Shown here in pieces: positions 4,257-62,715 of a DNA stretch of 64,000 nucleotides. How positions within the stretch are numbered: position 1 is the stretch's first letter; each line of letters begins with the position of its first letter. Below the pieces are notes generated by a model that was not told the origin of the DNA, made no database searches, and worked only from the letters and a program-made list of their open reading frames with translations. The stretch is from Croceicoccus mobilis. GTDB taxonomy: Bacteria > Pseudomonadota > Alphaproteobacteria > Sphingomonadales > Sphingomonadaceae. The DNA lies in the NCBI RefSeq assembly GCF_001661965.1, contig NZ_LYWZ01000026.1, positions 1-64,000 on the forward strand, read 5' to 3'. The translations under genes were made by a program, and so were the position numbers.

Positions 4257-4278
4257 CGGAAAAGATTCTGCCCCACTA

Positions 4279-4310
4279 AAAAGGAGCGGCGCTTCAGCAC
4301 CGCTCCTTTT
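4279..4310 (+). terminator. Rho-independent terminator after the Rieske oxygenase gene
   Basis: Perfect 11-bp stem AAAAGGAGCGG / CCGCTCCTTTT with a 10-nt loop, followed by TTTTC-rich sequence. It lies 22 bp past the Rieske oxygenase stop and between convergent genes; the A/T tracts on both sides may let it work in both directions. Confidence 0.85.
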
Positions 4311-4335
4311 CTTTTGCACATGATGAACGCTTCGA

Positions 4336-5430
4336 TCAGAACGAGGTAATCACGCTGCGGGCGATCGCACCGCCCTTCAGCTCCGCATAGGCCTCATTAA
4401 TCTCCTCGATCCCGATCTCGCGCGAGATCAGGTCATCGAGGTTGAGCTTACCCTGCAAGTACAGCTGGGCATACATCGGGATGTCTTGCTTGATATTAGT
4501 CGAACCCATATAGACACCGCGGAGATCAACCTGATTGGTCAACAGGTCGACCGTGACATTGACATCGATGGTCGATGTCGGCGCATGGACCCCGATCATA
4601 TAGGCGCCCCCGCCCTTGCGGGCCATCTGGATCGCCTGCTCCGATGTAGCCTTGATGCCCACGACCTCGAAAACGTGATCCGCGCCGCCCGGTATAAGCG
4701 TGCGCAACGCTTCGACAGAATTGCCGGAAGACGCATCGATGAAATCGGTCGCACCGAACTTGCGGGCAAGCTCTTCCTTCCTTGGCTGCATGTCGATCGC
4801 CACAATGCGCCCTGCGCCAGCCAGCTTCGCACCCGAAATAACGTTAAGCCCGACGCCGCCAATGCCGATCACGGCAACCGTATCGCCCGGGCGGACAGAA
4901 GCGGTATTGATCGCTGCACCTGCCCCGGTGATCGTGCCGCAGCCCAGCAGCGAGGCCTGTGCGAACGGCAGTTCCTTTGGCACCTTGGCAAGCTGGTTTT
5001 CATGCACCAGCGCCTTTTCCGCAAAGGCACCCGTACCGAAAACTTGCGTGACGGCCCCGCTCTCACCTCGCAGGCGCGGCTTCTCACCCTCATCGGCGCG
5101 CAGCGTTTTTTCCGGATGGGTGCATTGATAGGTCTTGCCCGAATTGCAGGCGCGGCAATGACCACAGAACTGGATAAGCGAGCCGACGACATGGTCGCCA
5201 ATCTCGAATTCGCGCACTTCGGGACCGACCGCGATGACCACGCCGGCCAGTTCGTGCCCCAACACGGCGGGAAGCGGCACGCCGAAATCGGTCTCGGCAA
5301 AGTGAAGATCGGAATGGCAAAGGCCCGATGCCTTCACCTCGACCAGCACCTCGTGGTCGCGGGGTTCGTCGATTTCGATTTCGCCGACCTGAAACGTACC
5401 GTCCAGGTTATTGAGTATGGCAGCCTTCAC
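4336..5430 (-). CDS. Zinc-dependent alcohol dehydrogenase (MDR superfamily)
   Basis: NAD(P)-dependent dehydrogenase of 364 residues. Catalytic zinc ligands are visible: C38 in GLCHSD, H59-E60 in GHELAG. The structural zinc lobe is C89-x2-C92-x2-C95-x7-C103. The Rossmann motif is GIGGVGLN. The overall pattern resembles class III-like enzymes (TGAGAAINTA, GGAYMIGVH), so an aryl or aliphatic alcohol, or a glutathione adduct of formaldehyde, are possible substrates. It sits downstream, on the same strand, of a small Cys-rich ORF and an aldehyde dehydrogenase gene. An alcohol-to-acid oxidation pair is the natural reading, though a formaldehyde-detoxifying role next to a demethylating oxygenase is also possible. 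Confidence 0.9.
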   Translation of the reverse strand: MKAAILNNLDGTFQVGEIEIDEPRDHEVLVEVKASGLCHSDLHFAETDFGVPLPAVLGHELAGVVIAVGPEVREFEIGDHVVGSLIQFCGHCRACNSGKTYQCTHPEKTLRADEGEKPRLRGESGAVTQVFGTGAFAEKALVHENQLAKVPKELPFAQASLLGCGTITGAGAAINTASVRPGDTVAVIGIGGVGLNVISGAKLAGAGRIVAIDMQPRKEELARKFGATDFIDASSGNSVEALRTLIPGGADHVFEVVGIKATSEQAIQMARKGGGAYMIGVHAPTSTIDVNVTVDLLTNQVDLRGVYMGSTNIKQDIPMYAQLYLQGKLNLDDLISREIGIEEINEAYAELKGGAIARSVITSF

Positions 5431-5454
5431 GTTCTTCTCCTTGATCCTTCTGCG

Positions 5455-5610
5455 TCAGGCGCAAATCGGCCCGACGATCATGGTCGTATCCTCAATCGCC
5501 TTTGGATTGCGGCAGCACTCGACCATCTGGTCGGGTTGGCCGATCGCGAATTTAAACGTTGCGCATTCGGCGCATGTGGGAAGCTTCTCACGCAGATCGT
5601 TCCAATTCAC
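5455..5610 (-). CDS. Candidate 51-residue Cys-rich small protein
   Basis: A GTG-started frame of 51 codons plus TGA. Key features are a CAEC pair (residues 13 and 16), adjacent cysteines at 32-33 in VECCRNPKAI, and a C-terminal ending VGPICA. The C-x2-C ... CC ... C spacing suggests a metal or iron-sulfur site or a disulfide-bonded protein. Its GTG overlaps the TGA of a preceding short frame (GTGA), the arrangement of translationally coupled genes. It lies 24 bp upstream of the alcohol dehydrogenase start and downstream of the aldehyde dehydrogenase gene, all on the reverse strand. I do not recognise a family; function is unknown. Confidence 0.45.
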   Translation of the reverse strand: MNWNDLREKLPTCAECATFKFAIGQPDQMVECCRNPKAIEDTTMIVGPICA

Positions 5611-5720
5611 GGAACTGTGTCTTCGAATGAGTCTTTCTGCGTCCTGGCCATCGTCGCATGGCGATCGCAGCGGTGAGCACGCTGCCTACACGCCGCCAAA
5701 CACGTCGAAAAACAACTCAT
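5607..5720 (-). CDS. Short frame (37 codons) overlapping the Cys-rich small gene
   Basis: ATG at 5720, or an internal ATG at 5651 giving a 14-residue peptide MARTQKDSFEDTVP. Its TGA is embedded in the GTGA start of the following Cys-rich frame. It could be a real small protein, a leader peptide that couples translation, or chance. The longer version is rich in Cys and Arg with no recognisable domain. Only the overlap argues for it. Confidence 0.2.
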   Translation of the reverse strand: MSCFSTCLAACRQRAHRCDRHATMARTQKDSFEDTVP

Positions 5721-5770
5721 TCACTCATGTCTCCCGTCTTTTCCTGTTGTGAAGGCAGCCATGTTCGCGC

Positions 5771-7276
5771 TCATTCGCCAAGCAGAGCGGTCACCGTCTT
5801 GGTCTCGGTGTAGTGCAGCAAGCCCTCTTCCCCGACCTCGCGGCCCCAGCCGGATTCCTTCACGCCGCCAAAAGGCGCGGAAGGATCGTTCATGCCGTGG
5901 GTGTTGATCCAGACCACGCCGGCCTGCAGTTGACGTGCGGTAAGATGCGCGCGCGAAAGATCGCGGGTCCAGATATTGGCGGCCAGCCCATAGTGTGTGT
6001 CATTGGCAGCCTTCACCACTTCCTCGACATCGTCGAACGGGGTGGCGACAAGGACCGGACCGAAGATTTCTTCACGCACAATGCTGGCGTCGCGGTCCGG
6101 ATTGGAGAAGATCGTCGGCTCTACGAAATAGCCGTCCTTGCCGCCGGTCCCGCCGCCGGTGACGACTTCGGCTCCGCACTGCCGGCCCTGTTCAATATAG
6201 TCGAGCACGCGGATCTGCTGCGCACGCGACACCAGCGGTCCAAGCATCGTGTCCGGATCACGGCCATGACCCAGCTTGAAGCCTTGCGCCACCTTTGCAA
6301 TGCCTTCGACAACCTGATCATAGACCGATCGTTCGACGAACAGGCGCGAGGCGGCGAGGCACACCTGACCCGAATTGAAAAAGATGGCGAGCGCGGCCCC
6401 GAGAGTCGCCTTCTCGAGGTCCGCATCGGCAAAAATCAGCGAAGGCGATTTACCGCCGAGCTCCAAAGTTACGCGTTTCAGATCATCGGCAGCCGTGCGC
6501 ACGATCTGCTTGCCGACCCTTGTCGAACCGGTGAAGGCGATCTTGTCCACGCCGCGATGTTCGACCAATGCCTGCCCGGCATCCTGGCCATAGCCCGTCA
6601 CCACGTTGAGCACGCCTTCTGGCAAACCGGCTTCGAGCGCGAGTTCAGCCAGTCGAAGCGCGGTCAGCGGCGTCAGTTCCGATGGCTTCAGGACGATCGT
6701 ACAGCCTGCCGCCAGCGCCGGCGCGATTTTCCACGCGGCCATCGCCAGCGGATAGTTCCATGGCACGATCTGGCCGACCACGCCCACTGGCTCGCGCACG
6801 GAATAGCTGTGGTATTGCTGCCCGTCGCCCGAAATCGGATTGACCTGCCCGCCGATCTTGGACGTCCAGCCCGCCATATAGCGAAAAATGTCGACCGCCG
6901 CCGGCACGTCGACGGCTAGCGCGTGATGCACCGCCTTGCCGTTGTCGTAACTTTCCAGAAGTGCCAGTTCGCCGGCGTGCTCCTCGATCTTGCGGGCGAT
7001 ATTCTCGATTATCTTGCCGCGGTCGAGCGGACGCATGCGCGCCCAGCTTGCAGACTCAAATGCCTTTCGCGCGGCGCTAACAGCACGGTCAATATCCTCG
7101 GCGGAACCTGCCGGGACGCGGGTGAAGATTTCGGCGGTGGCCGGATCCTCCACATTGATGCATTGCCCTTCGGCGCTTTCGATCCATTCGCCACCGATCA
7201 GCATGCGATTGCGTGGTAAGTGGACTTCGTGCCCCTTTTGACCATGCAGCGTCTGCGCAAAAGCCGTTGCGTTCAT
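5771..7276 (-). CDS. NAD(P)-dependent aldehyde dehydrogenase
   Basis: 501-residue ALDH superfamily enzyme oxidising an aldehyde to its acid. It shows the coenzyme segment GQIVPWNYPLAMAAWKIAPAL, the FTGSTRVGK loop, the general-base glutamate motif ELGGKSPS, the catalytic cysteine in NSGQVCLAASR, and the late EEIFGPVL motif. Length is standard. The start MNATAFAQ has a GGGAGAGAG ribosome site just upstream on the reverse strand. With the alcohol dehydrogenase and Rieske oxygenase it forms an oxidation module; substrate not determinable. Confidence 0.92.
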   Translation of the reverse strand: MNATAFAQTLHGQKGHEVHLPRNRMLIGGEWIESAEGQCINVEDPATAEIFTRVPAGSAEDIDRAVSAARKAFESASWARMRPLDRGKIIENIARKIEEHAGELALLESYDNGKAVHHALAVDVPAAVDIFRYMAGWTSKIGGQVNPISGDGQQYHSYSVREPVGVVGQIVPWNYPLAMAAWKIAPALAAGCTIVLKPSELTPLTALRLAELALEAGLPEGVLNVVTGYGQDAGQALVEHRGVDKIAFTGSTRVGKQIVRTAADDLKRVTLELGGKSPSLIFADADLEKATLGAALAIFFNSGQVCLAASRLFVERSVYDQVVEGIAKVAQGFKLGHGRDPDTMLGPLVSRAQQIRVLDYIEQGRQCGAEVVTGGGTGGKDGYFVEPTIFSNPDRDASIVREEIFGPVLVATPFDDVEEVVKAANDTHYGLAANIWTRDLSRAHLTARQLQAGVVWINTHGMNDPSAPFGGVKESGWGREVGEEGLLHYTETKTVTALLGE

Positions 7277-7719
7277 AGCTCTCTCCCTCGCGCAGGTTTC
7301 ATTCGCCAGCGCGTCAGTCTTTTCTCAAGGCGGCCGTCTGCCCGCCGCGCCGCATCAAACACCATCGGTCAGACAGCGCTCAGCCAGCGAGCCTCGTCAG
7401 GATGGTCGAAGCTTTGCGCTCATCTCGATTCCGGGGAATGGGTCACATTGATCCTCTCATCCATCACGCATCTCTCACTGTGCGTATATAGAATACGTAA
7501 CTAGCGATATGCAGATCGGCAATATGTTTAAAAGGTCGCACCAATATTGGCTTTTCATGGCAAAAATCACGTTTTTAAGCCGTTTTTCTAAGGCAAATGT
7601 CGAGGCTTGCTTCACTTTTTGAATAGTCAGCAGTGATTCGAATATCATCGGCCACCTAAGCTCATGACCCATTGATTTGCAGGCGGCGATATGAACCAGG
7701 CTCCGCGAGGAGACTGAGT
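7277..7719. other. Intergenic region upstream of aldehyde dehydrogenase, ending at an IS boundary
   Basis: About 440 bp. The left part should hold the promoter of the reverse-strand aldehyde dehydrogenase operon. The right part, from roughly 7640, should contain the left end of the IS5-type element, but I could not define its inverted repeat because the right end is lost. No supported gene. Confidence 0.35.
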
Positions 7720-43808: not shown

Positions 43809-44891
43809 TCAATGTCCGGTGACCGTCGTGCTGTCGAGCATGTTGCCAATGCCGATCACGATCGTCGCCCCGACCAGCAAAGCGATGCCGAGCCAGACCA
43901 TGCGCCGCGTACGGGTGCTGGCGCCCTTCCATTCCTTGAGCGCGAAACCCCACAGCGTGGAAAACAGGATGATCGAGGCCATGTGCAGCGTCCACGAAGA
44001 GAAGCTGAAGCGGCCCATCTGGCTTTCGCCCATCGTGTAGAAGAAGAACTGGAAATACCAGAGCGTGCCGCCCAGCGCGGCCAGCAGGTAATTCGCCAGA
44101 AGCGGCACCCGCGCCCCGGCAGAATCGTCGGTGCCCGCACCAAAGAACTGACCGAAGCTATTGTTGCGATGAATCAGTATGGCGCACCAGATCGCATTGG
44201 TCGTCAGCCCGCCTGCCAGCACGACGCACAGCACGGGGAGGCCCTGGCTGAGCGGATCGGTGCCGGCGGCCAGGGTTAGCTGGCGGATGGGTTCACCGGC
44301 GTCGAGGCCCCATGCAAAGCAGCCCGACAGCACGCCCGAGAAGACCGCGATGATGAGACCCTTTTTAAGGTCGAATTCGGCAACGCCCTCGCTGGCGCTA
44401 TCGCCCAGCTCCGCATCCTTGGCATGGCCCGCGCGGGCCACCACGATGATGCCGACAAGGGTGATCAGGATGGCGAACAGCGTGATCTGCCCGCTGGTGC
44501 GTGACGCGATATCGACCAGGGTCCCGCGGAAGATTGGCGGCCCCAATGTTCCCACGACAGTGGTCAGCCCCATGATCACCGCCATGCCGAGCGAAAGGCC
44601 GAGATAGCGCATGGTCAGCCCAAAGGTTAGCCCGCCAAAGCCCCAGAGCAGACCCCAGAAATAGCACCACCCCAGCGTGCTGGTCGGTGTGGCGGCCAGC
44701 ACGCCCAAAAGGTCGTTCGTCCTCCATGCGGCAAAGAACCAGGGGGCGATCGCCCAGGAAAACAGGCCACCGAAAAGCCAGAAGATCTCCCATGACCAGT
44801 ACTTGATGCGTTTGTAGGGGACGTAGAAACTGGCCGAGGCAAAGCCGCCCAGCCAGTGGAAGATCACGCCCAGTATCGGATTTGCGCCCAT
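43809..44891 (-). CDS. rhaT: L-rhamnose/proton symporter
   Basis: 360 residues with ten predicted membrane segments. The RhaT pattern is clear: GVIFHWLGGFASASFYVPYK then IKYWSWEIFWLFGG, GLTMRYLGLSLGMAVIMGLT, VARAGHAKDAE, FDLKKGLIIAVFSGVLSG, LGGTLWYFQFFFYTMGESQM and the terminal GIGN. It imports rhamnose released from rhamnogalacturonan. Third gene of the GDSL-GH28-rhaT operon, 74 bp after GH28. Confidence 0.93.
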   Translation of the reverse strand: MGANPILGVIFHWLGGFASASFYVPYKRIKYWSWEIFWLFGGLFSWAIAPWFFAAWRTNDLLGVLAATPTSTLGWCYFWGLLWGFGGLTFGLTMRYLGLSLGMAVIMGLTTVVGTLGPPIFRGTLVDIASRTSGQITLFAILITLVGIIVVARAGHAKDAELGDSASEGVAEFDLKKGLIIAVFSGVLSGCFAWGLDAGEPIRQLTLAAGTDPLSQGLPVLCVVLAGGLTTNAIWCAILIHRNNSFGQFFGAGTDDSAGARVPLLANYLLAALGGTLWYFQFFFYTMGESQMGRFSFSSWTLHMASIILFSTLWGFALKEWKGASTRTRRMVWLGIALLVGATIVIGIGNMLDSTTVTGH

Positions 44892-50263: not shown

Positions 50264-50980
50264 TTACTCGGCAATCGGGGTGATCCGCACGTTGCGGATC
50301 TGCAAATGGCTTTTCGTCGTGCGCAGCGCGAACCATCCCATTTTATAGGGATCGTCGTCCTGCATGGTGAAGATCCGCTTGCCGCCGTAATCGACGGCGA
50401 CGGTCTTGCCATTGGCGGTCAGCGTCACGCTGGTCCAAATATTGGGCTTTAGCATCACATCCGCATCGGCGCGGTCGTTTTCGGGCAGCAGCGGGCGATT
50501 GCCCGTTTCCCCGACATAGCGGCGCATCCGCGTCGTCGTGTTCCGGTTGCCGCCGATCCCGACATAATAGGTCTTCATCGTGTCATAGGTCGCAAAGGCC
50601 CCGCTGCGCCCATAGAACAGGGGCGAACTGTCGGGTGCTGACGGATCGGTCGCCATCCAGAAGGCGTTGACGTCGCTGACCTCGTCATTGGGGCCGCCCT
50701 CGCTGACTGCCCTGGCTTCAAAGCTGATCCTGACCGGCCCTTCGACCGGCTGGTTCCACCACAGCGAGAGCCCCTTGGGTGTGTCGATATCGATGATGTC
50801 GCCATCCAGCGCGCGCACCGTGGCATCCTCGCCCGCTTCGGCTTCCACCGTCCAGCCGGGCAGGCCCTTTTCCACCGGGAGCACGTCGACCGGAGGGATG
50901 GTCGACGCGCAGCCTGCCAGCAGCAATGCGACCGGCAGGAAAGCCCGGGGGGCAAGGCTAAAGCGGGAAGAAAGGGTCAT
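50264..50980 (-). CDS. DUF6250-type lipoprotein
   Basis: 238 residues from ATG 50980. Lipoprotein signal ending LLLAGC, then a jelly-roll-like domain with DTPKGLSLWWNQPVEGPVRI, DVNAFWMATDP, YYVGIGGNRNTTTRMRRYVG and MGWFALRTTKSHLQIRNVRI, matching DUF6250 proteins that accompany pectin lyases. The exact activity is unknown; carbohydrate binding or a lyase/hydrolase accessory is plausible. Its ATGA start overlaps the stop of the 923-residue upstream gene by four bases. Confidence 0.82.
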   Translation of the reverse strand: MTLSSRFSLAPRAFLPVALLLAGCASTIPPVDVLPVEKGLPGWTVEAEAGEDATVRALDGDIIDIDTPKGLSLWWNQPVEGPVRISFEARAVSEGGPNDEVSDVNAFWMATDPSAPDSSPLFYGRSGAFATYDTMKTYYVGIGGNRNTTTRMRRYVGETGNRPLLPENDRADADVMLKPNIWTSVTLTANGKTVAVDYGGKRIFTMQDDDPYKMGWFALRTTKSHLQIRNVRITPIAE

Positions 50981-53745
50981 GGACGCAGCACATCCCCGAT
51001 CAGGGTCAGGTTCTCGATCGCGGTCAGGCCCCATTGCGATGCATCATTGGTCGAGATCTCGATGATCTCGTCCACGGGCCTCAGCACCGCATCGCCGGTG
51101 ACGCGATGCCCTTCGGCATATTGGTCGCGGTCTGTCCGGTCGCCGGGTCCGAAGAATTCGGCCCATGCGCGGCGTTTGAGTTCGGGATCGTCGCGCATGA
51201 CGCCTGCATAGGCGGTAAAGCGCGAGTGTGCCTGCCGCAGCCCGCGTCCCGCCGCGCCCGGCGCGCCGCCAGGCAGCGTGTATTTCTCGGCGGTGAGATT
51301 ATAGACCGCGCAGTAATCCAGCCAGGCCTCTTCATATTCGGGCACGTCGAGCAGGGTGAGCAGTTCCGCCGTGATCTCGAACACGCCGAAAACGCCCGAC
51401 AAATGGCTGATCGAAATTTCATCGCCCGCGCCCAAGAAGCGCCCGGTCTTGAGATCAAAGGGCGCACCGCCCGCGAGCCAGCCGTATTTAAGGCCCGCAA
51501 TGCTCTTCATCCCGTTGACGATCATGGATTTCGCCCATTCGGACCGGGTGCGCTCCCACTCTGTCAGCCATGCGGCGAGCAGCGATCCCCAACTGGTGCC
51601 AAAGCCCATCATCACCTGGCCTTCGGGCAGGCCATTGCCCGCCCCGATGCTGCCGGTCATGCGATTATCGCCTTCACGCGCATTGACCTTGCGCTCGATG
51701 ATCACGGTGGAGAGCGCCTTGGCGCTGTCGTTGAGATCGCGCATCAGATCGCCGCAACGTTCATCGGCGGCGAGGTAGAAGTAGAAGCGGCGATAGGCGG
51801 CATTGGAAATGCGTGGCTGTTTCGAACTATCGGCCCAGTGCTGCACCCCGTGGCGCGTGCCCAGCCCCTTGAACCGGCCGGTGTGATAGACATCGACCTC
51901 GCCGGTGTGGCGGGTCATCGCCTCGGCCATGCGGAACACATCGGCGCGGCCGGTGCGCAGATAGCTGGTCCACAGCCACAGATCGCTCGACAGTTCGGAA
52001 TTGTCCCAGGCAAAGCCGCCGATGTCATAGCGCCAGACATGGCGGTCATTGTCATAGCTGTGCATGACATCGCCATAGTTCCAGAACCCGTACCAGCGCC
52101 GCTGGTCGACCTGGCCCACATAGAAATCGAGTTCGCGCTTCAGCCGCGCCTCGATCTTCTCACGCAGCGGATTGCCGTCGGCGGCGGGCGGGCTCCACGG
52201 GCCGAACATGTCCGCTTCATACACGCGCATCGTATTGGCGGTCAGGCGGGCAGGGGTCTCCATCGTCGCCGACATCTGCGCCAGCCGGTCGCGCGAAGGC
52301 GTGGCGGGCAGGGCCCACAGGCGAAATTCCATCGTGCGCGCAATGCCGGATGCATCGCCCCAGCCGGGCTCATAATCTTCATAGGTCACGTCGAGCCCGC
52401 GGTTCTGGTCGACGTAATCCTCCATCCCCATCACGTCGTGATAGAAACGCAGATCCATCGCGGGCGCATCGGGGGCATGGTACCAGACCGTGAAACCGGC
52501 CTTGTCCGACGCGGCATCATTGATGTCGAGGCCAGTCGGGCAACGCTGCCAGAAATCATGCATGCCGAATGCGACGCCGCCGGTGGTCCCGCCGACATAG
52601 CCAAGGCCCGGCGCGCGGCCGGCGGTGTCGACATCGATCCAGCCGAAGCCGGGTGCCGTGCGCTTGATGATCGAGAACCCGTCGGCATTGGGCTGGCGCA
52701 GACGGAAATCGCCCCAGGCCGGGATGAACTGCAGATTGGGCCGCACCCGCTCCGACATTTCGGACAGGGGCGGGGTGGGCATGCCGGCGACCTGCGCGGC
52801 GCGGAAAGTCTCGCCCGGATCGCGGCGCAGGCCGGTGAGGGGGCGCACCGCCTCTCCCCACAGGCCGCCATCCTCGCCGCCAAAGCGGACATGGCGGTCA
52901 TGCAGTTCATCGCGCATCGGCACATGGCCCGACAGGCCAAGCCCGCGGATGAAGCGTTTCGCCGGATCGCCGTCGAAGATCTGCGAATGCACGATCCGCA
53001 CGCTGGCGCTGCCCGCGTGGAAATACAGGCGCATGGAAAAGGGCATCCAGTCGCCCCCTTCGCCGGTGAATTTGCCAAACAGTTTCACGACCGCGCGGAT
53101 CGGGCCGGTCTGCTCGATCTCGGCCCCGGTGATCGTGCCGGTCGATCGGATCAGTTTCGGCGCGGCCTCGACCGGGCCGGTGCCGTCGTCGCCGGGCTTG
53201 TCCTGATCGGTCGCGTGGAAATGCACGTCTTCCAGCACGGTGCGCCCGTCGGCGCTGGTCGCGCGCAGGAAATTCGTGCCCGATTTGGCGATGGACCACA
53301 CCGTCGCGCCATTGGTGACGGTGATCGCCGTGGATCCATCGGCGAGCTTGAGCGAGGGCGCTCCTTTGGCGGCGCCCGGCTTGACAGCGAAGCCATCTGC
53401 CAGCGCGGCATCGGCGGCAGTGGCGTGGCCGGTCCACTTGATCGAACCGTCCGGCCACCATGCCAGCGGCCATGTCTGAAGCGGGATCTTTCCGTCCTTG
53501 CCCGAAAGGTGATATCCCGACTTGTCGTATTTCGTCCCGCGCGGCCAAGGTTGTCCCCATGCCTGCCCTTCATGCGCGGCGGGCGGCGCAGGGTCGAGCC
53601 ATGCGACGTCTGGGCCGGAGCCCTTATGCAATCCGGTCGATGGGGCGGGGGAGGCTGCCTGCGCAAGGCCCGGCAATGCCGCTGCCGAACCTGCCAGTGC
53701 CGAGGAAGCCAGCATCGATCGACGTGTCATGGACGCCAGGGCCAT
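50977..53745 (-). CDS. Exo-rhamnogalacturonan lyase-like protein (PcRGLX/YetA type)
   Basis: About 922 residues. Tat-type signal MTRRSMLASSALAGSAAALP-GLAQA. Three regions follow: a beta-sandwich (PLQTWPLAWWPDGSIKWTGH, typical of PcRGLX_1st), a central domain (RGLGLSGHVPMRDELHDRHV ... GFSIIKRTAPGFGWIDVDTA), and an (alpha/alpha)-barrel-like C-terminal region (RWYGFWNYGDVMHSYDNDRH then VWRYDIGGFAWDN). These match the YetA/PcRGLX group that includes rhamnogalacturonan exolyase. ATG 53745, after GGGAGATGAT, is preferred to 53757. In the reverse-strand operon it precedes the DUF6250 gene. Confidence 0.85.
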   Translation of the reverse strand: MALASMTRRSMLASSALAGSAAALPGLAQAASPAPSTGLHKGSGPDVAWLDPAPPAAHEGQAWGQPWPRGTKYDKSGYHLSGKDGKIPLQTWPLAWWPDGSIKWTGHATAADAALADGFAVKPGAAKGAPSLKLADGSTAITVTNGATVWSIAKSGTNFLRATSADGRTVLEDVHFHATDQDKPGDDGTGPVEAAPKLIRSTGTITGAEIEQTGPIRAVVKLFGKFTGEGGDWMPFSMRLYFHAGSASVRIVHSQIFDGDPAKRFIRGLGLSGHVPMRDELHDRHVRFGGEDGGLWGEAVRPLTGLRRDPGETFRAAQVAGMPTPPLSEMSERVRPNLQFIPAWGDFRLRQPNADGFSIIKRTAPGFGWIDVDTAGRAPGLGYVGGTTGGVAFGMHDFWQRCPTGLDINDAASDKAGFTVWYHAPDAPAMDLRFYHDVMGMEDYVDQNRGLDVTYEDYEPGWGDASGIARTMEFRLWALPATPSRDRLAQMSATMETPARLTANTMRVYEADMFGPWSPPAADGNPLREKIEARLKRELDFYVGQVDQRRWYGFWNYGDVMHSYDNDRHVWRYDIGGFAWDNSELSSDLWLWTSYLRTGRADVFRMAEAMTRHTGEVDVYHTGRFKGLGTRHGVQHWADSSKQPRISNAAYRRFYFYLAADERCGDLMRDLNDSAKALSTVIIERKVNAREGDNRMTGSIGAGNGLPEGQVMMGFGTSWGSLLAAWLTEWERTRSEWAKSMIVNGMKSIAGLKYGWLAGGAPFDLKTGRFLGAGDEISISHLSGVFGVFEITAELLTLLDVPEYEEAWLDYCAVYNLTAEKYTLPGGAPGAAGRGLRQAHSRFTAYAGVMRDDPELKRRAWAEFFGPGDRTDRDQYAEGHRVTGDAVLRPVDEIIEISTNDASQWGLTAIENLTLIGDVLRP

Positions 53746-55035: not shown

Positions 55036-55149
55036 ATTGGGCTTTGACAGCACTATGTGAACTTTTTCTTGACTGTGAATCGGAATGGAACGAAAGAGGC
55101 GACGCTTCACCGACCACAGAGTCGGGACCGAGATTTGGGGAGTAAGCTG

Positions 55150-57840
55150 ATGCGAAAGACTAATCATACATTCCTGATCGCCGGCGCTTCGGCCATTGCT
55201 CTTGCCTTTGGCGGCACCGCCAATGCGCAGGACGCAACCACCGCGTCGAGCGATGACACCATGGCCGAAGCGGCCGACGAAACCGATGCGCAGACGCCGG
55301 CTCCTGCCGATGAAAATGTCATCGTCGTGTCGGGCATCCGCCAGAGCCTTGAAAACGCCCTTCGCGCCAAGCGCGATTCGGACCAGGTCCTCGATGCCAT
55401 TTCGGCAGAGGACATCGGCAAGTTCCCGGACAAGAACGTGGGCGAGGCGCTGCAGCGCGTCACCGGCGTTCAGATCAGCCGCACCAACGGCGAAGGCAGC
55501 GGCGTCTCCATCCGCGGCGCCAGCCCAGATCTCAACCGCGTTGAAATGAACGGCGTCTCGATGCTGGGCACGCAGTCGGGCTCGCGCGCGGTCGATTTCC
55601 GCGATATCCCGGTCGAATTCGTCAACCGTCTCGAAGTCGTGAAGTCGGTGACTCCCGACATGACCGAAGGCGGCCTTGGCGGCACGGTGCGCATCATCAC
55701 CCGCCGTCCGTTCGATTCGAAGGAAGATTCCTTCATCGCGGGGTCTGCGCAGGGCATCTATTCGGAAATCGGCGATACGCTCGATCCCAAGCTCGCGCTG
55801 ATCGGTTCCAAGCGTTTTGCCGACGACACCATGGGCATCCTGCTGTCGGCCACCTATGAACGCCGCCGGATCGAGACGCACACCACCCGCACCACCGGCT
55901 GGCGCCAGATCACCGATCCCGACACGGGCGAACTCTACGACCTCGACGGTAACGGCAATCCGGATTTCTTCCCCGAAATCCCGCGCTATTCCGAAGACGT
56001 GCTGGATACGAAGCGCATCGGTCTCAACGGCGTGTTCGAATACAAGCCCACGGATGACCTCCACGCCTATGTCGAAGGGACCTACACCCGATCAAAGCAG
56101 GACCTGGAAGCGCCCTATTTTCAGCTGTTCAGCGGCGGCGCGCTGGTCGATGCAGCCAATTCGGCCACGGGTGAGGACGATACCGTCAGCCAGGTCACCT
56201 ATCTGAACAATGGCTCGGCCCCCTATCTGAACCTGCGCACCATCCGCGGCGACATCACGCGCTATAACTGGAGCGCGGCGGGCGGCGTCGACTATACGCC
56301 CGGCCAATGGGAAATCGGTGTCCGCACCAGCTTCTCCAAGGCGCAGATCGACAACGACTACGTCAACACCACGGCGGACGTGCGCGGTCTCGATTATCTG
56401 ATCGTGAACTACGACAATGCCGAATATGCGCCGGAAATCACGCTTCCGTTCGATTATGACGATTCGTCGGCGATCAACTATGTCCGCGTGCAGCACCGCC
56501 CGGTCCTGTCGACGCAGGAAGAGTTCATGGCCAAGGGCGATGTCGCGCGCAACGACCTGACCGACTGGCTGACCCAGCTCAAGGCGGGCGTCCAGTATCG
56601 CCGCACCACGCTCGACAACAAGCAGTGGGACGCGAATATCATCCTCGACGGATATTCCGATCCCTCGCTGCTGGACGAGATCCAGAGCTATGCCGACCTG
56701 CTCGTCCCGATCGAGAACGAGTTCTTCAATACCGGCTCGCTTGGTGGCTTCTCGGTCCCGGCCTGGCTGTATGACGATGGCGCGTTCTCCTCGGCCATCG
56801 GTGTTCCCGATCCGTACGACAACCCGACGCTCAGCGCGACCTATGACGTGGTCGAAAAGAACCTTGCCGGCTATCTGCAGGGCAGCTTCACCTTCGACCT
56901 CGGCGTGCCGTTCTATGGCGTGGTCGGTGCCCGCGTGGTCCAGACCAAGACGACCGCGAACGGCTATCAGTCGGCAGGCGGCGTGTTCTCGCCGGTCAGC
57001 TTCGACGGTGATTATGTCGAGTTCCTGCCCGCACTGAACCTGCGTGCCGACATCATCCCGAACAAGCTTCTGTTCCGCGGCTCGGCGACCGAGGTGCTGG
57101 CCCGTCCGAACCCGACCGATCTTGCCCCGCGCCTGACGCTGGACATCGTCGGATTCTCCGGTTCGCGCGGCAATCCGGATCTGCAGCCCTATCGTGCCCG
57201 TCAGTACGATGCCGGTCTCGAATATTACATAGACTCGGTCAGCTTCGTGTCGGCGACCTATTTCCGCAAGGAAATCAGCTCGTTCATCGAACGTACCACG
57301 GTCAACGAAACCTATGATGGCCAGGTCTATGCGATTAACCTGCCGGTCAACGGCTCGGCTGCGGTGACGGTTAACGGTCTTGAGATTGGCGGCCAGCTGT
57401 CGTTCAGCACCTTTACCGACATGGCGGTCGTGCAGAACTTCGGCGTGATCGCGAATTTCACCTATTCGAAGGACTCGGGCTATGAAGGCACCGACTACTT
57501 CACGGGTGAGCAGCTTCCGTTCCCGGGCCTCTCGCGCAAGAGCTACAACCTCTCGCTCTATTACGAGGATGATCTGTTCAGCCTGCGCGGTTCGTACAAC
57601 TGGCGCTCGAAGTATCTGATCAACGCGGTCGGCCGCGGCAACAACCCCGAATTCGGCGAAGCTGCAGGCCAGCTCGACGTTTCGGCGAGCGTCAACGTGA
57701 CCGACAATATCTCGGTGTTCTTCGAAGGTGTGAACCTCACCGACGAGATGACCATCCAGAACGCCAACAGCACTTACCGCCGGATCTTCATGGAAACCTA
57801 CGGCCCCCGTTACTACGGCGGCGTTCGCTTCCGCTTCTGA
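55150..57840 (+). CDS. Carbohydrate-type TonB-dependent receptor
   Basis: 896 residues from ATG 55150 with GGGGAG upstream. Signal MRKTNHTFLIAGASAIALAF-GGTANAQ, acidic linker, then plug sequence VIVVSGIRQSLENALRAKRD, AISAEDIGKFPDKNVGEALQ and RVTGVQISRTNGEGSGVSIR, the signature of the large Xanthomonas/Caulobacter/Sphingomonas receptor group used for plant oligosaccharides. The barrel ends with RYYGGVRFRF. It probably imports pectic oligomers across the outer membrane. Confidence 0.94.
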   Translation: MRKTNHTFLIAGASAIALAFGGTANAQDATTASSDDTMAEAADETDAQTPAPADENVIVVSGIRQSLENALRAKRDSDQVLDAISAEDIGKFPDKNVGEALQRVTGVQISRTNGEGSGVSIRGASPDLNRVEMNGVSMLGTQSGSRAVDFRDIPVEFVNRLEVVKSVTPDMTEGGLGGTVRIITRRPFDSKEDSFIAGSAQGIYSEIGDTLDPKLALIGSKRFADDTMGILLSATYERRRIETHTTRTTGWRQITDPDTGELYDLDGNGNPDFFPEIPRYSEDVLDTKRIGLNGVFEYKPTDDLHAYVEGTYTRSKQDLEAPYFQLFSGGALVDAANSATGEDDTVSQVTYLNNGSAPYLNLRTIRGDITRYNWSAAGGVDYTPGQWEIGVRTSFSKAQIDNDYVNTTADVRGLDYLIVNYDNAEYAPEITLPFDYDDSSAINYVRVQHRPVLSTQEEFMAKGDVARNDLTDWLTQLKAGVQYRRTTLDNKQWDANIILDGYSDPSLLDEIQSYADLLVPIENEFFNTGSLGGFSVPAWLYDDGAFSSAIGVPDPYDNPTLSATYDVVEKNLAGYLQGSFTFDLGVPFYGVVGARVVQTKTTANGYQSAGGVFSPVSFDGDYVEFLPALNLRADIIPNKLLFRGSATEVLARPNPTDLAPRLTLDIVGFSGSRGNPDLQPYRARQYDAGLEYYIDSVSFVSATYFRKEISSFIERTTVNETYDGQVYAINLPVNGSAAVTVNGLEIGGQLSFSTFTDMAVVQNFGVIANFTYSKDSGYEGTDYFTGEQLPFPGLSRKSYNLSLYYEDDLFSLRGSYNWRSKYLINAVGRGNNPEFGEAAGQLDVSASVNVTDNISVFFEGVNLTDEMTIQNANSTYRRIFMETYGPRYYGGVRFRF

Positions 57841-57991: not shown

Positions 57992-60900
57992 TTGATCGAA
58001 TTCTTGCGGACAAATCGGACCCTTGCGGCGACCCTGTTGCTGGCAGCTGCCTGCCTGCATGGCGCGTCGGCTTTTGCCGCCCAGCCGGATGGCGGCCTGC
58101 TGTTCGCCATGGATGGATCGACAGGAACCGAGGCGCAGCAGGCGGGCGGCGCGGCGCGGCCGCTTTTCAATCGCGGCGTACGGGCGGCCTCCGATGGCGC
58201 TGTCGGTCCGGCGCTTGATCTTGATGGCGATCTGACCTTGGCATGGGCCGCGCCCGGCAACATGCTGGCACAGCGCGGCACGATTTCCTTTTTCATCCGC
58301 TCGACAGATCCGTTCGATAAGGCACCGGTCACGCTTTTCAGGGTGGGCACCGCCGATTCCACCAGCTGGGATTTCACCTTCCTCAGGGTCGACTGGAACG
58401 GGCATGGCTATGATGCCTTTGTCACCGATGCCAATCTGGGCCGGACCCGCGTTTCCTGGGTATCGCCCGATGCGCCCGATGGCAGCGACTGGGTGCATGT
58501 CGCCTTTGCATGGGATGAGGAAACGGGCGCAGAGCTGTGGATTGATGGAAAACGCGTAGGTGCGGCGAAATCGACCGGCGTATTCGACCAGTCACTGTTC
58601 GCATTCGGTCCGTTCCAGCGGGTCATCAGCCCGCAAAAGACCGAAAGCGCCTATAATGGTGTGCGGCCGGGCCAGCTGGACGAGCTGAGGATCTACGATC
58701 ACGCGCTCAGTGATGGCGAAGTGGCAAAGCTGGCGGCGGGCGAAGCCGTGTCGTCCACCGCCGCCGCGCCGCGCAGCTTAAACGACAAGGGCGTGAGCGC
58801 CGACTGGGACGCGCGCTTCGGATGGAGCGGCGTGTCGGCGCTCGACATCCCGGCCAGGAGCGGGGCGCTGGCCATACGCAAGGTTGAATTTACCGATACC
58901 CGCGATGAAAAGACCAAGGCTTTTCGCGGTGCCGACGGCATTCGCGAAACGACATGGCCCGGCGTCTATAACCGCTCGCGCCTGACCGGGCGGACCGATT
59001 ATTTCGTGCTGCCTGACTGGAACACCTATTCCACCGCGGGCCGCCGATACGATCTCACCCTGCCGGACAAGGCGTGGAACCGGGTTGAGATTCAGGGTGC
59101 AGCGCATGGCAGGCTGCTGTGGCAGGACAAGCCTGTCCTCACCCGCCGCGCCGGAATCGAACGCAGCAGCGACGCGCTGAATACCCGCACCGGCGGCGTG
59201 CTCAGCTTTGTGAACGATCTGCCCGAAACGCCGATACAGGAAATCGGTGTCTATCACGTGCATGCGGTCGAAGCGTTGCCCGAAAGCTGGCGGCAGCTGG
59301 ATTACACCGTCGATATTGCCGCCAGCCCCGGCGCTTATCGCGGGCTCGACACGCTGACGGCGGCGCTGGCCGGGCGCCGCCCGCGCGACGAACGCGCCGC
59401 CGTGGTCGCGCTGCCCTCCGGTGGACCGCTGGTTGAGGGCGCATCGGGCGCGATTCCGGCGCCGGACGAAAAGACCCTGCCGGTCGTCACCGTGATGATC
59501 CCCGCGACCTTCCGCGACCAGGCCCACGGCGGCATCGCCACGCGCTTCGACCAAGGGTGGAAGAACATGAACGCCGGACTTGACGGCGTGGCGCTGACCC
59601 TGCCTGCGATGGGCACGGCCAAAAGCATGGCGCTTAATATAAGGCTGCACGATCCGCTCTGGCCCGCGCGCGATCTGGTGGATATCAATGTCCGCATCGA
59701 TCCGCGTCATGCGAACACGATCTGGCTCGACAGCCGCGACCGGATTTTGCGCGATGGCGACCCCATTTCCCTGACCATTGCTTCTGCCGATCCGGATTTC
59801 GGCGCGGCCAGCCTGCAAGGCGCGGAGATCTCGCTCCGCTTCAAACCGGCGGATGCGGCACGGGCAGAGCATGTGGCCGACCGGCTCGAACAGGCGCGCG
59901 ACCAGCTGGCCTCGACCATCGAGGAAAAGCCGGCGAGCCGCCTCTACCCATCCTATGTCCGGTTCGAGCGCGACGTTTCCGATGTGCTGCGCGTCGATCC
60001 CGACAATGCGCGCGCGCTGGCGCTGTGGCACGAGGTCAATCCCGATCAAGCCGCACAGGCCGTGCCGCCTCCGCCGCCCGTGCCCGATGGCGTCCCCGCA
60101 TGGGCTTTCCGCCAGACCGAGGCGCTCAAGACCTATCGCGAATTCGTCGACTGGTGGATCGATCATCGCCAGATGCCGAGCGGCGAATTTGGCGGTGGGC
60201 TTTCCGACGATACCGATCTGGTCAACCAGTGGGTCGGCCTTGCGCTGATGGGGGTGGAGCGCGAGCGCATCGCCGCTTCGCAGCGCGCGGTGCTGGATGC
60301 GACCATCGCCAATGGCATGTGGGACAATGGGATCAATCGCATCGTCACCGACCAGCTCCACACTTACGAGGAAGGCATCAACACGCTGGCGCAGGCGATG
60401 ATGCTGACCCCCGGCGATCCCGCGCTGATCGCCATGGCGCAGGCGGCGGTGGCCCAATATCCGCGCATCATCCGCAAAAACCCGGCGGGTCACGATCATT
60501 TCGCCAGCGCCTGGTATTCGGGCAGCGAGATCTACACCGGCGGTCATCTGGGGCGGCAATATCCCTATAGTTTCCTGATCACCCATCCCGGCCTGCTGCT
60601 CGGCGAATATGAAGGGGACGAGGCGGCGAGACGGTCGATCCTTGCGGCTCTCGACAGCTGGCTGGCCCATGCGGAAAAGGGCGACAATGGCGTGTGGCGC
60701 ATCCCTTCGGAAATCGCATGGGAAAGCGACAGCGGCAGCGGCAATGGCGTCGGCCCCGCGATCCACGATTTCTGGGCGGCATGGCTGTGGACCGGCGATG
60801 ACCGATATCTGCGTGCGATTGCACCTGCCGGCATGACCGCAGGGTCGGCCGCGAACCTGTTTTCGCTGAATGCCGATGCGCTTGCATGGCTGCCGGGGGG

Positions 60901-61528
60901 TGACGCGCTGGCGCGCAAGATCGCCGATGGCGCGCTGTCAGACCCCGGTGCGCGGTTCGACCCCAATCTGGGCACGGCCAGCAATGCCGATCGCGCCCGT
61001 TTCGTCACATGGCAGATGGACGGCGACAATGATCTGCTGGCAAACCTCTATGCCGGGGAAACGGCTCGCACGCGCGCACGCTGGTATGTGCTGACCGATG
61101 CGGAGCTGTGGTCGGACCGTGTCGCGGTACCGAGCGAGTTTCTCCAGCGCGCAAGGCTGGGCGGGGTGGCGCATCTCAGAAACGCCTATTTCCCGGGCAA
61201 TCTTGTCGAATGGCGTTTTGCCGATCCGCATGGGGCAGAGGATATGGGGATCATGATCCCCCGTGGGAACCGCACGCAATTCCGCGTGATCGCGCATAAT
61301 CTCTCGGACCGGCCGATCGAAGCTGAAATGCTGGGCGCGATGCTGACGGGCGGGCAATGGACCATGACCTCGGGCCGCGATGCCGATGGCGACAACCGCG
61401 CCGACCGGCAGGAAAATGCGGCGAAAGTGACGCTGGCGCGGGGGCAGGGCGTGACCCTGCTTTTCCCGCCGCACCGGACGATGGTTTTCGACTTCGCGCT
61501 GGCCATGCCCGAGGTGGCAAGACCGTGA
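57992..61528 (+). CDS. 1178-residue secreted multidomain protein of unknown activity (LamG-like plus alpha/alpha-barrel-like)
   Basis: TTG start at 57992, AAAGGA 14 bp before; an in-frame TTG at 58004 is an alternative. Signal peptide RTLAATLLLAAACLHGASAF-AA. Residues about 30-250 form a LamG/concanavalin-like jelly roll (GTISFFIRSTDPFDKAPVTL; ending GQLDELRIYDHALSDGEVAK). Residues 270-420 look like another beta-rich module, 430-690 like two further sandwich domains, and 700-1100 like an (alpha/alpha) toroid (EALKTYREFVDWWIDHRQMP, SGEFGGGLSDDTDLVNQWVG, TYEEGINTLAQAMMLTPGDP, HLGRQYPYSFLITHPGLLLG). No known catalytic motif is recognised. Co-transcribed with galM (GTGA overlap), inside a pectin locus, so a new polysaccharide lyase or hydrolase acting on rhamnogalacturonan is the best inference. 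Confidence 0.85.
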   Translation: MIEFLRTNRTLAATLLLAAACLHGASAFAAQPDGGLLFAMDGSTGTEAQQAGGAARPLFNRGVRAASDGAVGPALDLDGDLTLAWAAPGNMLAQRGTISFFIRSTDPFDKAPVTLFRVGTADSTSWDFTFLRVDWNGHGYDAFVTDANLGRTRVSWVSPDAPDGSDWVHVAFAWDEETGAELWIDGKRVGAAKSTGVFDQSLFAFGPFQRVISPQKTESAYNGVRPGQLDELRIYDHALSDGEVAKLAAGEAVSSTAAAPRSLNDKGVSADWDARFGWSGVSALDIPARSGALAIRKVEFTDTRDEKTKAFRGADGIRETTWPGVYNRSRLTGRTDYFVLPDWNTYSTAGRRYDLTLPDKAWNRVEIQGAAHGRLLWQDKPVLTRRAGIERSSDALNTRTGGVLSFVNDLPETPIQEIGVYHVHAVEALPESWRQLDYTVDIAASPGAYRGLDTLTAALAGRRPRDERAAVVALPSGGPLVEGASGAIPAPDEKTLPVVTVMIPATFRDQAHGGIATRFDQGWKNMNAGLDGVALTLPAMGTAKSMALNIRLHDPLWPARDLVDINVRIDPRHANTIWLDSRDRILRDGDPISLTIASADPDFGAASLQGAEISLRFKPADAARAEHVADRLEQARDQLASTIEEKPASRLYPSYVRFERDVSDVLRVDPDNARALALWHEVNPDQAAQAVPPPPPVPDGVPAWAFRQTEALKTYREFVDWWIDHRQMPSGEFGGGLSDDTDLVNQWVGLALMGVERERIAASQRAVLDATIANGMWDNGINRIVTDQLHTYEEGINTLAQAMMLTPGDPALIAMAQAAVAQYPRIIRKNPAGHDHFASAWYSGSEIYTGGHLGRQYPYSFLITHPGLLLGEYEGDEAARRSILAALDSWLAHAEKGDNGVWRIPSEIAWESDSGSGNGVGPAIHDFWAAWLWTGDDRYLRAIAPAGMTAGSAANLFSLNADALAWLPGGDALARKIADGALSDPGARFDPNLGTASNADRARFVTWQMDGDNDLLANLYAGETARTRARWYVLTDAELWSDRVAVPSEFLQRARLGGVAHLRNAYFPGNLVEWRFADPHGAEDMGIMIPRGNRTQFRVIAHNLSDRPIEAEMLGAMLTGGQWTMTSGRDADGDNRADRQENAAKVTLARGQGVTLLFPPHRTMVFDFALAMPEVARP

Positions 61529-62715
61529 CCCGCGTAGCCACTGCTCTTGCGGCCTGCGCCGCGATGCTGGCACTCGGCGCACCTGCTCAGGCGCAAAGCG
61601 TGTCCGTGCGCGATTACGGCGCCTTGTCCGATGGGCGCATGGTCCATGAATACACGCTCTCCAGCGGCGATGGCATGGATGTGCGCGTGCTCGACTATGG
61701 CGGGATCGTCACCGCCGTCCTCGTTCCCGATCGGGATGGGCGTCGCGATAATGTGGTGCTCGCTCTGCCCGATATCGCCGCGATCGAGGCACGGCCGAAT
61801 TTCAGCGCGATCATCGGACGCTATGCCGGTCGGTTATCGGGCCATGGGGTGACCATCGATGGGAAATTCCACGCGCTCGACACCAATGATGCGGGGATCA
61901 TTACCCATGGCGGCAAGGGCGGCTTTGGCGCGCAGCTTTGGCAAGCTCGCGAGACGCCGATGCCAAGGCGAGCGGCGCTGACCCTTACGCTGGTGAGCCC
62001 CGATGGAGACAATGGCTTTCCCGGGACGATGACGACGCAGGTCACGTTCTCCGTTGGCCGGGATCACGTGCTGCGGCTCGATTACCGGGCGACCACGACG
62101 GCGCCGACGGTGGTCAACCTGACCCATCATGCCTTTTTCAACCTTGCAGGCGCAGGGGAAGAGGGGGTGGACCGCCAATGGATCCACGTGGCGGCGTCAC
62201 GCTACACGCCGCTGGGCGATCACAGCCTCCCGACTGGCGCGATCGCTACGCTCGACGACATGCCGCTGGACCTGCGCGGGTGGACCCGGCTTGGCGCGGT
62301 GATGCGCTCGCCATGGCCGGGAATCGTGGCCATGCGTGGGCTCGACCATTACTGGGTTCTGGACGGCTGGGGCGGTGACGGGCGCTCGGTCGCCCCGCAG
62401 GCGTGCCTTTACGATCCGGGCAGCGGGCGCCTTCTGGCGGTGCGAACAAGCGAACCGGGCATGCAGCTTTATACCGGCAATGGCTTCGACGGCATGCGAG
62501 AGGCGATGGCCGGTGATGGACGCCGCTATTTCCTGCGACAGGGGGATGGTATTGCACTGGAAACACAGCATTTTCCGGATAGCCCGGCGCATCCGCAATT
62601 TCCCTCCACCGTATTGCGTCCGGGCGCGGCGATGACCAGCACGACCAGCTTTCGCTTTGCCGCCTTGAAGGACCCCGAAGACGGTCCGCCACCAGCGGGA
62701 GCATGCGGCGGATGA
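61525..62715 (+). CDS. galM: Periplasmic aldose 1-epimerase (mutarotase)
   Basis: 396 residues from a GTG that overlaps the previous stop. Signal peptide VTRVATALAACAAMLALGAP-AQA. GalM motifs: GGIVTAVLVPDRDGR, IIGRYAGRLSGHGVTIDGK, the catalytic His in NLTHHAFFNLAG, DHYWVLDGW, MQLYTGNGFDG and the catalytic Glu in GIALETQHFPDSPAHPQFPS. It interconverts anomers of free sugar, here probably galactose or rhamnose released in the periplasm. Confidence 0.92.
   Translation: MTRVATALAACAAMLALGAPAQAQSVSVRDYGALSDGRMVHEYTLSSGDGMDVRVLDYGGIVTAVLVPDRDGRRDNVVLALPDIAAIEARPNFSAIIGRYAGRLSGHGVTIDGKFHALDTNDAGIITHGGKGGFGAQLWQARETPMPRRAALTLTLVSPDGDNGFPGTMTTQVTFSVGRDHVLRLDYRATTTAPTVVNLTHHAFFNLAGAGEEGVDRQWIHVAASRYTPLGDHSLPTGAIATLDDMPLDLRGWTRLGAVMRSPWPGIVAMRGLDHYWVLDGWGGDGRSVAPQACLYDPGSGRLLAVRTSEPGMQLYTGNGFDGMREAMAGDGRRYFLRQGDGIALETQHFPDSPAHPQFPSTVLRPGAAMTSTTSFRFAALKDPEDGPPPAGACGG

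What the first reader, a model, noticed from the sequence alone, without database searches (positions are those of the whole stretch)
57992..61528. Large secreted protein of unrecognised activity in a pectin locus
The 1178-residue gene sits between the carbohydrate TonB receptor and galM and is translationally coupled to galM. Seen in sequence: signal peptide, LamG-like jelly roll, several beta-rich modules and an alpha/alpha-toroid-like C-terminal half. No catalytic motif of GH28, PL22, GH105 or YetA-like enzymes is present, although these activities surround it. Inference: a new pectin-active lyase or hydrolase family.
Basis: partly seen in the sequence, partly recalled or inferred. Interest (0 to 1): 0.75.

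Follow-up and report, generated by a model that had tools for sequence, protein, structure and literature searches.

The report
Unclassified pectin-locus enzyme, probable uronate lyase
A large secreted bacterial protein that the tested family libraries classify only in its sugar-binding-type front module often sits in gene clusters for eating acidic plant sugars such as pectin, and may be a new kind of enzyme that cuts them; this rests on sequence and gene context, with no assay.

Summary
The gene is real: 1178 aa, TTG start at 57992, signal-like N-terminus, between a TonB receptor and galM, with a 4-nt GTGA overlap into galM. Pfam recognises only Laminin_G_3 (residues 90-245); NCBIfam and PDB sequence searches add nothing. 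Full-length relatives occur in 13 of 298 genomes of its bacterial family (own one included), Caulobacter, Asticcacaulis and rumen Bacteroidales. Its C-terminal half is homologous to a second unclassified ~850-aa Bacteroidota family (hhalign 99.7%, E 1e-25). KduI and/or KduD genes lie near 10 of 26 alphaproteobacterial loci. G708 and G027 have no GH88/105, PL22, PL1 or DUF2264 match. I favour a new uronate (pectin-type) lyase family, about 45%. Substrate, chemistry and active site are inferred. Both structure predictions were poor (pLDDT 46.5, 56.8), so toroid and cleft are weakly supported or untested.

The parts
57992..61528 (+). Unclassified 1178-aa secreted protein (the finding)
   Evidence: homologs
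57992..58081 (+). Signal-peptide-like N-terminus (residues 1-30)
   Evidence: hydropathy; no predictor run
58259..58726 (+). LamG / ConA-like jelly-roll module (residues 90-245)
   Evidence: PF13385 E 3.7e-13
58355..58429 (+). Conserved block in the LamG module (residues 122-146)
58775..59827 (+). Middle region (residues 262-612), mostly beta in the low-confidence model, no Pfam or PDB relative
58931..59020 (+). Most conserved block of the family (residues 314-343)
   Evidence: 22 invariant positions in a 30-residue window, 0 of 5000 shuffles reach it
60059..61081 (+). Helical, probably (alpha/alpha)-toroid region (about residues 690-1030), homologous to the ~850-aa Bacteroidota family
60152..60217 (+). 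Conserved block with Q727, D739, D740 (residues 721-742)
60350..60382 (+). Conserved block with D787, H790, E794 (residues 787-797)
61205..61501 (+). C-terminal beta region (about residues 1072-1170)
61525..62715 (+). galM (aldose 1-epimerase), likely GTG start overlapping the finding's stop by 4 nt
   Evidence: PF01263; sequence
55057..57840 (+). TonB-dependent receptor
   Evidence: TIGR01782
63148..63999 (+). GH88/105 gene; Pfam match runs past the window to contig position 64254
   Evidence: PF07470
47797..49179 (+). PL22 oligogalacturonate lyase gene
   Evidence: PF14583
50977..53757 (-). PcRGLX-type (exo-rhamnogalacturonan-lyase-like) gene
   Evidence: PF21346/PF21345/PF19501
44966..46645 (-). 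GH28-like gene
   Evidence: PF12708
46480..47691 (-). GDSL (acetyl)esterase gene
   Evidence: PF13472

Best explanation
The protein belongs to a new family of exported enzymes that cleave uronic-acid glycans of the pectin type and yield 4,5-unsaturated uronate, that is, a polysaccharide or oligosaccharide lyase; in the window's organism it probably works on rhamnogalacturonan/galacturonan pieces next to PL22, GH28-like, PcRGLX and GH105 enzymes. Shown: the gene, its export-type N-terminus, the family, homology of its C-terminal half to a second unclassified Bacteroidota family, and repeated linkage, with 4-nt overlaps in some loci, to unsaturated-uronate and pectin genes. Inferred: that it is an enzyme, that it is a lyase, that pectin is the substrate, and that catalysis sits in the toroid half, where Q727, D739, D740, D787, H790, D1042 and R1043 are identical in all 28 aligned members of both subfamilies and E794 in 27; H790 as base with a metal held by the acidic residues is a guess by analogy with metal-dependent pectate lyases (recalled).
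For: KduI in 11 of the 13 genomes with this protein against 37 of the 285 without it (Fisher 4e-8, no correction for kinship). KduI and/or KduD (>=50% identity) near 10 of 26 alphaproteobacterial loci, the own contig included. G708: uxaC-kduI-kduD-TonB receptor-pectinesterase-KdgK-like kinase-homolog on one strand, kinase/homolog overlap ATGA. G125: PL22-like gene overlaps the homolog by ATGA, and galM follows on the same strand. G708 and G027 have no PF07470, PF14583, PF00544 or PF10022 match, so none of those four families explains how they feed KduI. The Bacteroidota family shows the same linkage in 2 of its 8 loci: kduI and kduD directly after it in L092; GH105 before it and PL22 immediately after it in L096.
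Against: 16 of 26 alphaproteobacterial loci show no kduI/kduD in the stretch fetched (9.5 to 64 kb); of the 13 genomes with the protein in the 298-genome sample, KduI is physically near in 6 (G027, G043 as a copy cut by the contig end, G110, G155, G171, G287). 37 genomes have KduI without this family. Within the own subclade (7 members in the tree) only the own locus and G125 have kduD; the rest have GH42, GH28-like, DUF6250 or no recognised CAZyme neighbour. The own genome has no KduI at E<=1e-30 and already has PL22 and GH105. No tyrosine is identical in all 28 toroid sequences, though Y939 (27) and Y859 (26) are nearly so and R1043 is identical. In G708 a DUF3141 protein of unknown function lies just downstream of the homolog and could be the active one. 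PL2, PL3, PL9, PL10, PL11, PL26, GH28 and other families were not searched in the whole genomes of G708 and G027. The structure models are poor.
Confidence: 0.45

Rival explanations
1. An unsaturated-uronyl hydrolase: it removes the unsaturated uronate that other lyases leave at the non-reducing end, as GH88/GH105 do, and supplies KduI.
For: GH88/105 are (alpha/alpha) barrels (recalled); G027 and G708 have kduI/kduD but no PF07470; a marginal profile match of the 28-sequence toroid alignment to GH105 (probability 43%, E 2.5e-4); acidic residues are among the most conserved.
Against: No Pfam GH88 match in any of 20 members; 14 of 18 genomes tested have GH88/105 as well, the own one beside this gene; A1 alone and A3 alone give no GH105 match (3.9% and 0.7%); in G027 and G708 no PL1 or PL22 was found either, so another lyase would still be needed.
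Confidence: 0.2
2. A glycoside hydrolase that trims neutral side chains (galactan, arabinan) of RG-I and hands monosaccharide to the neighbouring aldose epimerase.
For: galM directly behind the gene in the own locus and G125, and near in G868 and G963; GH43, GH42 and GH3 genes in other loci; best weak fold hits include GH76 and an AGE-type epimerase.
Against: Does not explain the kduI/kduD/kdgK/uxaC linkage or the pectinesterase row of G708.
Confidence: 0.17
3. A uronate dehydratase of the kind described for GH154 and P29_PDnc: it makes the unsaturated uronate from a saturated non-reducing end.
For: Such dehydratases are known and pair with GH88/105 (PMC12269599 and PMC8511951, passages and one section read); the linkage to KduI would be the same. 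A Tyr/Arg mechanism as proposed there is not excluded: Y939, Y859 and R1043 are near-invariant or invariant.
Against: No DUF2264/PF10022 match, no profile match to GH154 (six-sequence profile); no tyrosine is identical in all 28 toroid sequences; G027 and G708 lack the GH88/105 partner.
Confidence: 0.07
4. A non-catalytic surface or periplasmic glycan-binding protein.
For: LamG module and TonB-receptor neighbours; the LamG block 122-146 is strongly conserved.
Against: Several strongly conserved blocks including acidic/His motifs in the helical half, shared with a second family in which no LamG was found in the 3 members scanned.
Confidence: 0.08

Closest known systems
Unclassified ~850-aa Bacteroidota proteins (L031-L038, alignment A3)
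   Same: C-terminal half homologous over 475 columns (hhalign 99.7%, E 9.7e-26); shares Q727, D739, D740, G780, D787, H790, D1042, R1043 in all 28 sequences and E794 in 27; near kduI/kduD in L092 and near PL22 and GH105 in L096
   Different: Different N-terminal half; no significant Pfam or NCBIfam match in the 3 members scanned (one DUF2674 hit at E 0.083)
GH88/GH105 unsaturated uronyl hydrolases
   Same: Same pathway neighbourhood; probably same fold class; marginal profile match
   Different: No Pfam match
PL22 oligogalacturonate lyase
   Same: Same pathway; overlapping gene in G125
   Different: PL22 is a beta-propeller (recalled); no sequence match
PcRGLX / PL26-like lyases with beta domains plus alpha/alpha toroid
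   Same: Similar general layout of beta modules and a toroid; a PcRGLX gene lies in the same window; 5 of 8 PcRGLX-bearing genomes of a 149-genome sample also carry this family
   Different: No sequence or profile relation
GH154 / DUF2264 uronate dehydratases
   Same: Uronate enzymes feeding the same pathway (papers)
   Different: No Pfam or profile relation

Membership tests
Laminin_G_3 (PF13385) module | Profile match above the curated cut-off | tested here: met
   50.3 bits against 27.6, residues 90-245; 19 of 20 members of A1 match
GH88/GH105 | PF07470 match | tested here: not met
GH88/GH105 | Profile-profile relation | tested here: inconclusive
   43% for the combined toroid alignment, 3.9% for A1, 0.7% for A3
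PL22 | PF14583 match | tested here: not met
PcRGLX / PL26-like | PF19501, PF21345, PF21346 match or profile relation | tested here: not met
GH154 / DUF2264 | PF10022 match or profile relation | tested here: not met
Other Pfam families, CAZyme ones included | Pfam match at E up to 10 in any of 20 members (HMMER's filters drop most above about 0.1) | tested here: not met
   only LamG, Pentaxin, DUF1287 (1 member) and Mce4_CUP1 (1 member) appear
Any CAZy family | dbCAN/CAZy HMM match | not testable with these tools
   no dbCAN library here
(alpha/alpha)-toroid enzymes | Confident predicted fold with an open cleft | tested here: inconclusive
   pLDDT 46.5 full length, 56.8 for residues 600-1178; no PDB hit below E 0.001 for the latter
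Polysaccharide lyase | Beta-elimination giving an unsaturated uronate | not testable with these tools
   needs an assay

The most novel reading that the evidence does not exclude
A new clan of pectin/uronate lyases, defined by a toroid module with an acid/His motif (GxxGGxxxDD ... DxxH) joined to a LamG plus a unique middle module in Alphaproteobacteria and rumen Bacteroidales and to another N-terminal module in other Bacteroidota, that lets some bacteria live on pectin without PL1, PL22 or GH88/105.
Probability: 0.3. Interest if true: 0.75.

Novelty: new variant of a known kind. Interest (0 to 1): 0.55.

Why it matters
If right, it adds an unclassified enzyme family in two phyla to pectin breakdown and would explain how bacteria such as G708 and G027, which have the unsaturated-uronate catabolic genes but none of four upstream families searched, obtain their substrate. 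It would also give a function to proteins now called only 'LamG domain-containing protein'. The test is simple: a 232-nm assay on pectin fractions.

Tried and rejected
Relation to PcRGLX (in the same window): hhalign gives nothing. Relation to GH154: nothing. Relation to GH105: marginal only. Control for these: GH105, GH154 and PcRGLX profiles do not find each other either (0.5%, 0.3%, 2.1%), and the profiles are shallow (20, 6 and 8 sequences), so these negatives do not exclude a shared fold. Viral contigs: no relatives with P0001, A1 or A3. Pfam tally of 93 neighbour proteins: I picked the 93 from mechanical ORF calls (245 ORFs, the family's own ORFs included), leaving out large TonB-receptor-like ORFs and others, and some of the 93 may be antisense ORFs; no single CAZyme dominates (GH43 in 4, DUF885 in 4). 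Foldseek on the full-length model gave 4 hits below E 0.001 and returned lectin-type jelly rolls (CBM40, pentraxin, laminin G, neurexin and the sugar-binding domains of clostridial neurotoxins); this is the common ConA-like fold of the LamG module and says nothing about toxicity. Paper searches found nothing that describes this family (concern dehydratases); they cover only open-licence PMC papers, and the single hit (PMC10434189) was seen in the listing only.

Limits of the counts: searches scored at most two candidates per genome, so their counts are lower bounds. I take to cover the same 298 genomes, because the handles agree. The rough binomial (7 of 20 loci with kduI nearby) used 20 where 19 unnamed alphaproteobacterial loci exist and assumed 60 kb in every case; it is given no weight. 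The Fisher test treats genomes as independent. When I checked the report against the calls, I corrected several statements (class-level count, near-invariant tyrosines, the DUF3141 neighbour, gap lengths); none required a change of odds.
Full report
Observation. The ORF at 57992-61528 codes for 1178 aa from a TTG start. A hydrophobic stretch followed by ASAFAA resembles a signal peptide (no predictor run). It begins 151 nt after the stop of a TonB-dependent receptor gene (TIGR01782), and its TGA overlaps a likely GTG start of an aldose-1-epimerase gene by 4 nt. Pfam names for the neighbours fit pectin use: GH28-like, GDSL esterase, PL22, DUF6250, PcRGLX, IclR, GH88/105. A protein resembling the L-rhamnose transporter RhaT at 43809-44891 fits too, but this resemblance is recalled, not searched.

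What it is. Pfam finds only the LamG module at 90-245; at E up to 10 over 20 members nothing else recurs except the Pentaxin profile in 10. NCBIfam finds nothing. PDB sequence searches give LamG-type chains and one insignificant hit (E 0.78), and nothing for the middle region. Three plasmid homologs (3 of 72,556 records) are annotated 'LamG domain-containing protein'.

Family. Full-length homologs are in 13 of 298 genomes of the same bacterial family, own genome included, 8 of 96 genera. In the class sample 8 of 289 genomes matched: the own one, three more full length (G708, G868, G963), and four with the LamG region only. Others are in Caulobacter, Asticcacaulis and rumen Bacteroidales. In 395 Bacteroidota genomes the profile matched 47: G300 full length, 8 with the C-terminal half, and 38 with the LamG region alone. 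Those 8 proteins (844-906 aa as ORFs; L031-L038) form a second unclassified family; the 3 members scanned have no significant Pfam or NCBIfam hit. Profile comparison with the finding's family gives 99.7%, E 9.7e-26 over 475 columns. Polar positions identical in all 28 sequences are Q727, D739, D740, D787, H790, D1042 and R1043; E794 and Y939 are identical in 27, Y859 and R815 in 26. In the LamG-type family 166 of 1178 positions are invariant in 20 sequences, dense at 122-146, 314-343, 721-742 and 787-797; the densest 30 residues (314-343) hold 22, reached in 0 of 5000 shuffles.

Structure. Two AlphaFold2 jobs with six sequences each gave mean pLDDT 46.5 (full length) and 56.8 (600-1178). Helices fill most of 620-1026, with beta regions on both sides. 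Foldseek on the second model gave no hit below E 0.001; top hits are a glucose-2-epimerase and GH76 barrels, presumably for the helical part, and GH30, GH44, GH97 and other enzymes over about 90-110 columns, presumably for the beta end. This agrees with an (alpha/alpha) toroid but does not prove it, and the cleft could not be examined.

Gene context. Seed proteins were searched by tblastn over 26 alphaproteobacterial loci of the family, 9.5-64 kb each (repeated with more seeds, without G025). KduI or KduD (>=50% identity) was found in 10: own contig (KduD and a KdgK-like gene beyond the window's end), G125, G043, G110, G171b, G155, G287b, G027, G708 and the Novosphingobium capsulatum plasmid; 16 had neither. 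UxaC, altronate dehydratase and mannitol-dehydrogenase-type reductase relatives were all present in six of these: G171b, G155, G287b, G027, G708 and N. capsulatum (record annotation; family checks). In the 298-genome sample KduI is in 48, this family in 13, both in 11 (Fisher 4e-8, uncorrected for kinship); in 6 of these 11 a KduI copy lies in the same fetched stretch. 37 genomes have KduI without the family.

Two gene rows are telling. In G708 the order on one strand is uxaC, kduI, kduD, TonB receptor, pectinesterase (PF01095, 1e-35), a KdgK-like PfkB kinase, then the homolog, whose ATG overlaps the kinase stop by 4 nt; a DUF3141 protein follows. In G125 a PL22-like gene (PF14583, 1.5e-11) overlaps the homolog by 4 nt, and galM follows on the same strand. 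G708 and G027 have no match to GH88/105, PL22, DUF2264 or PL1. Other lyase families and GH28 were not searched there. The second family shows kduI and kduD directly behind it in L092, and GH105 before and PL22 a few nt behind it in L096; the other six loci have GH2 and GH20-like relatives, and one of these (B366) a KduD some 20 kb away.

Against. Outside these loci the company is mixed: GH43 in 4 and DUF885 in 4 of 93 neighbour proteins scanned, GH42, GH3, serine hydrolases, or no CAZyme annotated within 12 kb (Asticcacaulis AND118 plasmid). The own subclade (support 1.0 in the FastTree tree) has kduD in two of seven members. The own genome has no KduI at E<=1e-30 and has its own PL22 and GH105.

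Reading. KduI works on the unsaturated-uronate product of lyases, usually after GH88/105 or PL22 action (recalled). In the G708 row the homolog is, beside the DUF3141 protein, the only product without a known role; an export-type N-terminus was seen in the homolog, and the DUF3141 protein was not examined for one. I therefore hold a lyase most likely (0.45), then a GH88/105-like unsaturated-uronyl hydrolase (0.20), a neutral side-chain hydrolase (0.17), a binding protein (0.08) and a GH154-like dehydratase (0.07). The dehydratase papers were read in passages and one section (PMC8511951; PMC12269599); PMC8377490 as outline with abstract. Others were seen only in search listings.

Known or new. 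None of the libraries searched and none of the paper searches made here (listed in Tried and rejected) names the family. dbCAN/CAZy could not be consulted, so a recent CAZy family could already cover it.

Noticed in passing
L031-L038 (unnamed Bacteroidota genomes): A ~850-aa family without significant Pfam or NCBIfam match in the 3 members scanned, its C-terminal half homologous to the finding; in 6 of 8 loci close relatives of one GH2 and one GH20-like protein recur beside it.
   Followed up: partly
L106:10984-11808 and homologs in 10 loci: A ~275-aa protein with no Pfam match and only weak NCBIfam similarity to 2-oxo-hexenedioate decarboxylases/hydratases recurs in the uronate loci, often beside an MFS transporter.
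   Followed up: partly
L077:12036-13220, L080:11845-13038, L078:6117-7643, L083:3591-4502: DUF885-type proteins next to the family's gene in four loci, for no evident reason (Pfam for the first and third; the four cluster together).
   Followed up: no
own genome contigs C1:36786, C16:738, C17:738, C19:72675: The same KduD-like stretch (70% to N. capsulatum KduD, identical scores) appears on four contigs, at least three times near a contig end: a repeat or an assembly overlap.
   Followed up: no
L088:335-4051 and 4075-7719: A rumen Bacteroidales genome carries two copies of the family in tandem; one search shows a third on another contig.
   Followed up: no
window 43809-44891 (-): Membrane protein resembling the L-rhamnose/proton symporter RhaT (recalled, not searched), which would fit rhamnogalacturonan use.
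   Followed up: no
window 50264-51034 (-), and near the homologs in G294, G868, G963: DUF6250 protein overlapping the PcRGLX ORF in the window; DUF6250 relatives also occur in three other loci of the family.
   Followed up: partly
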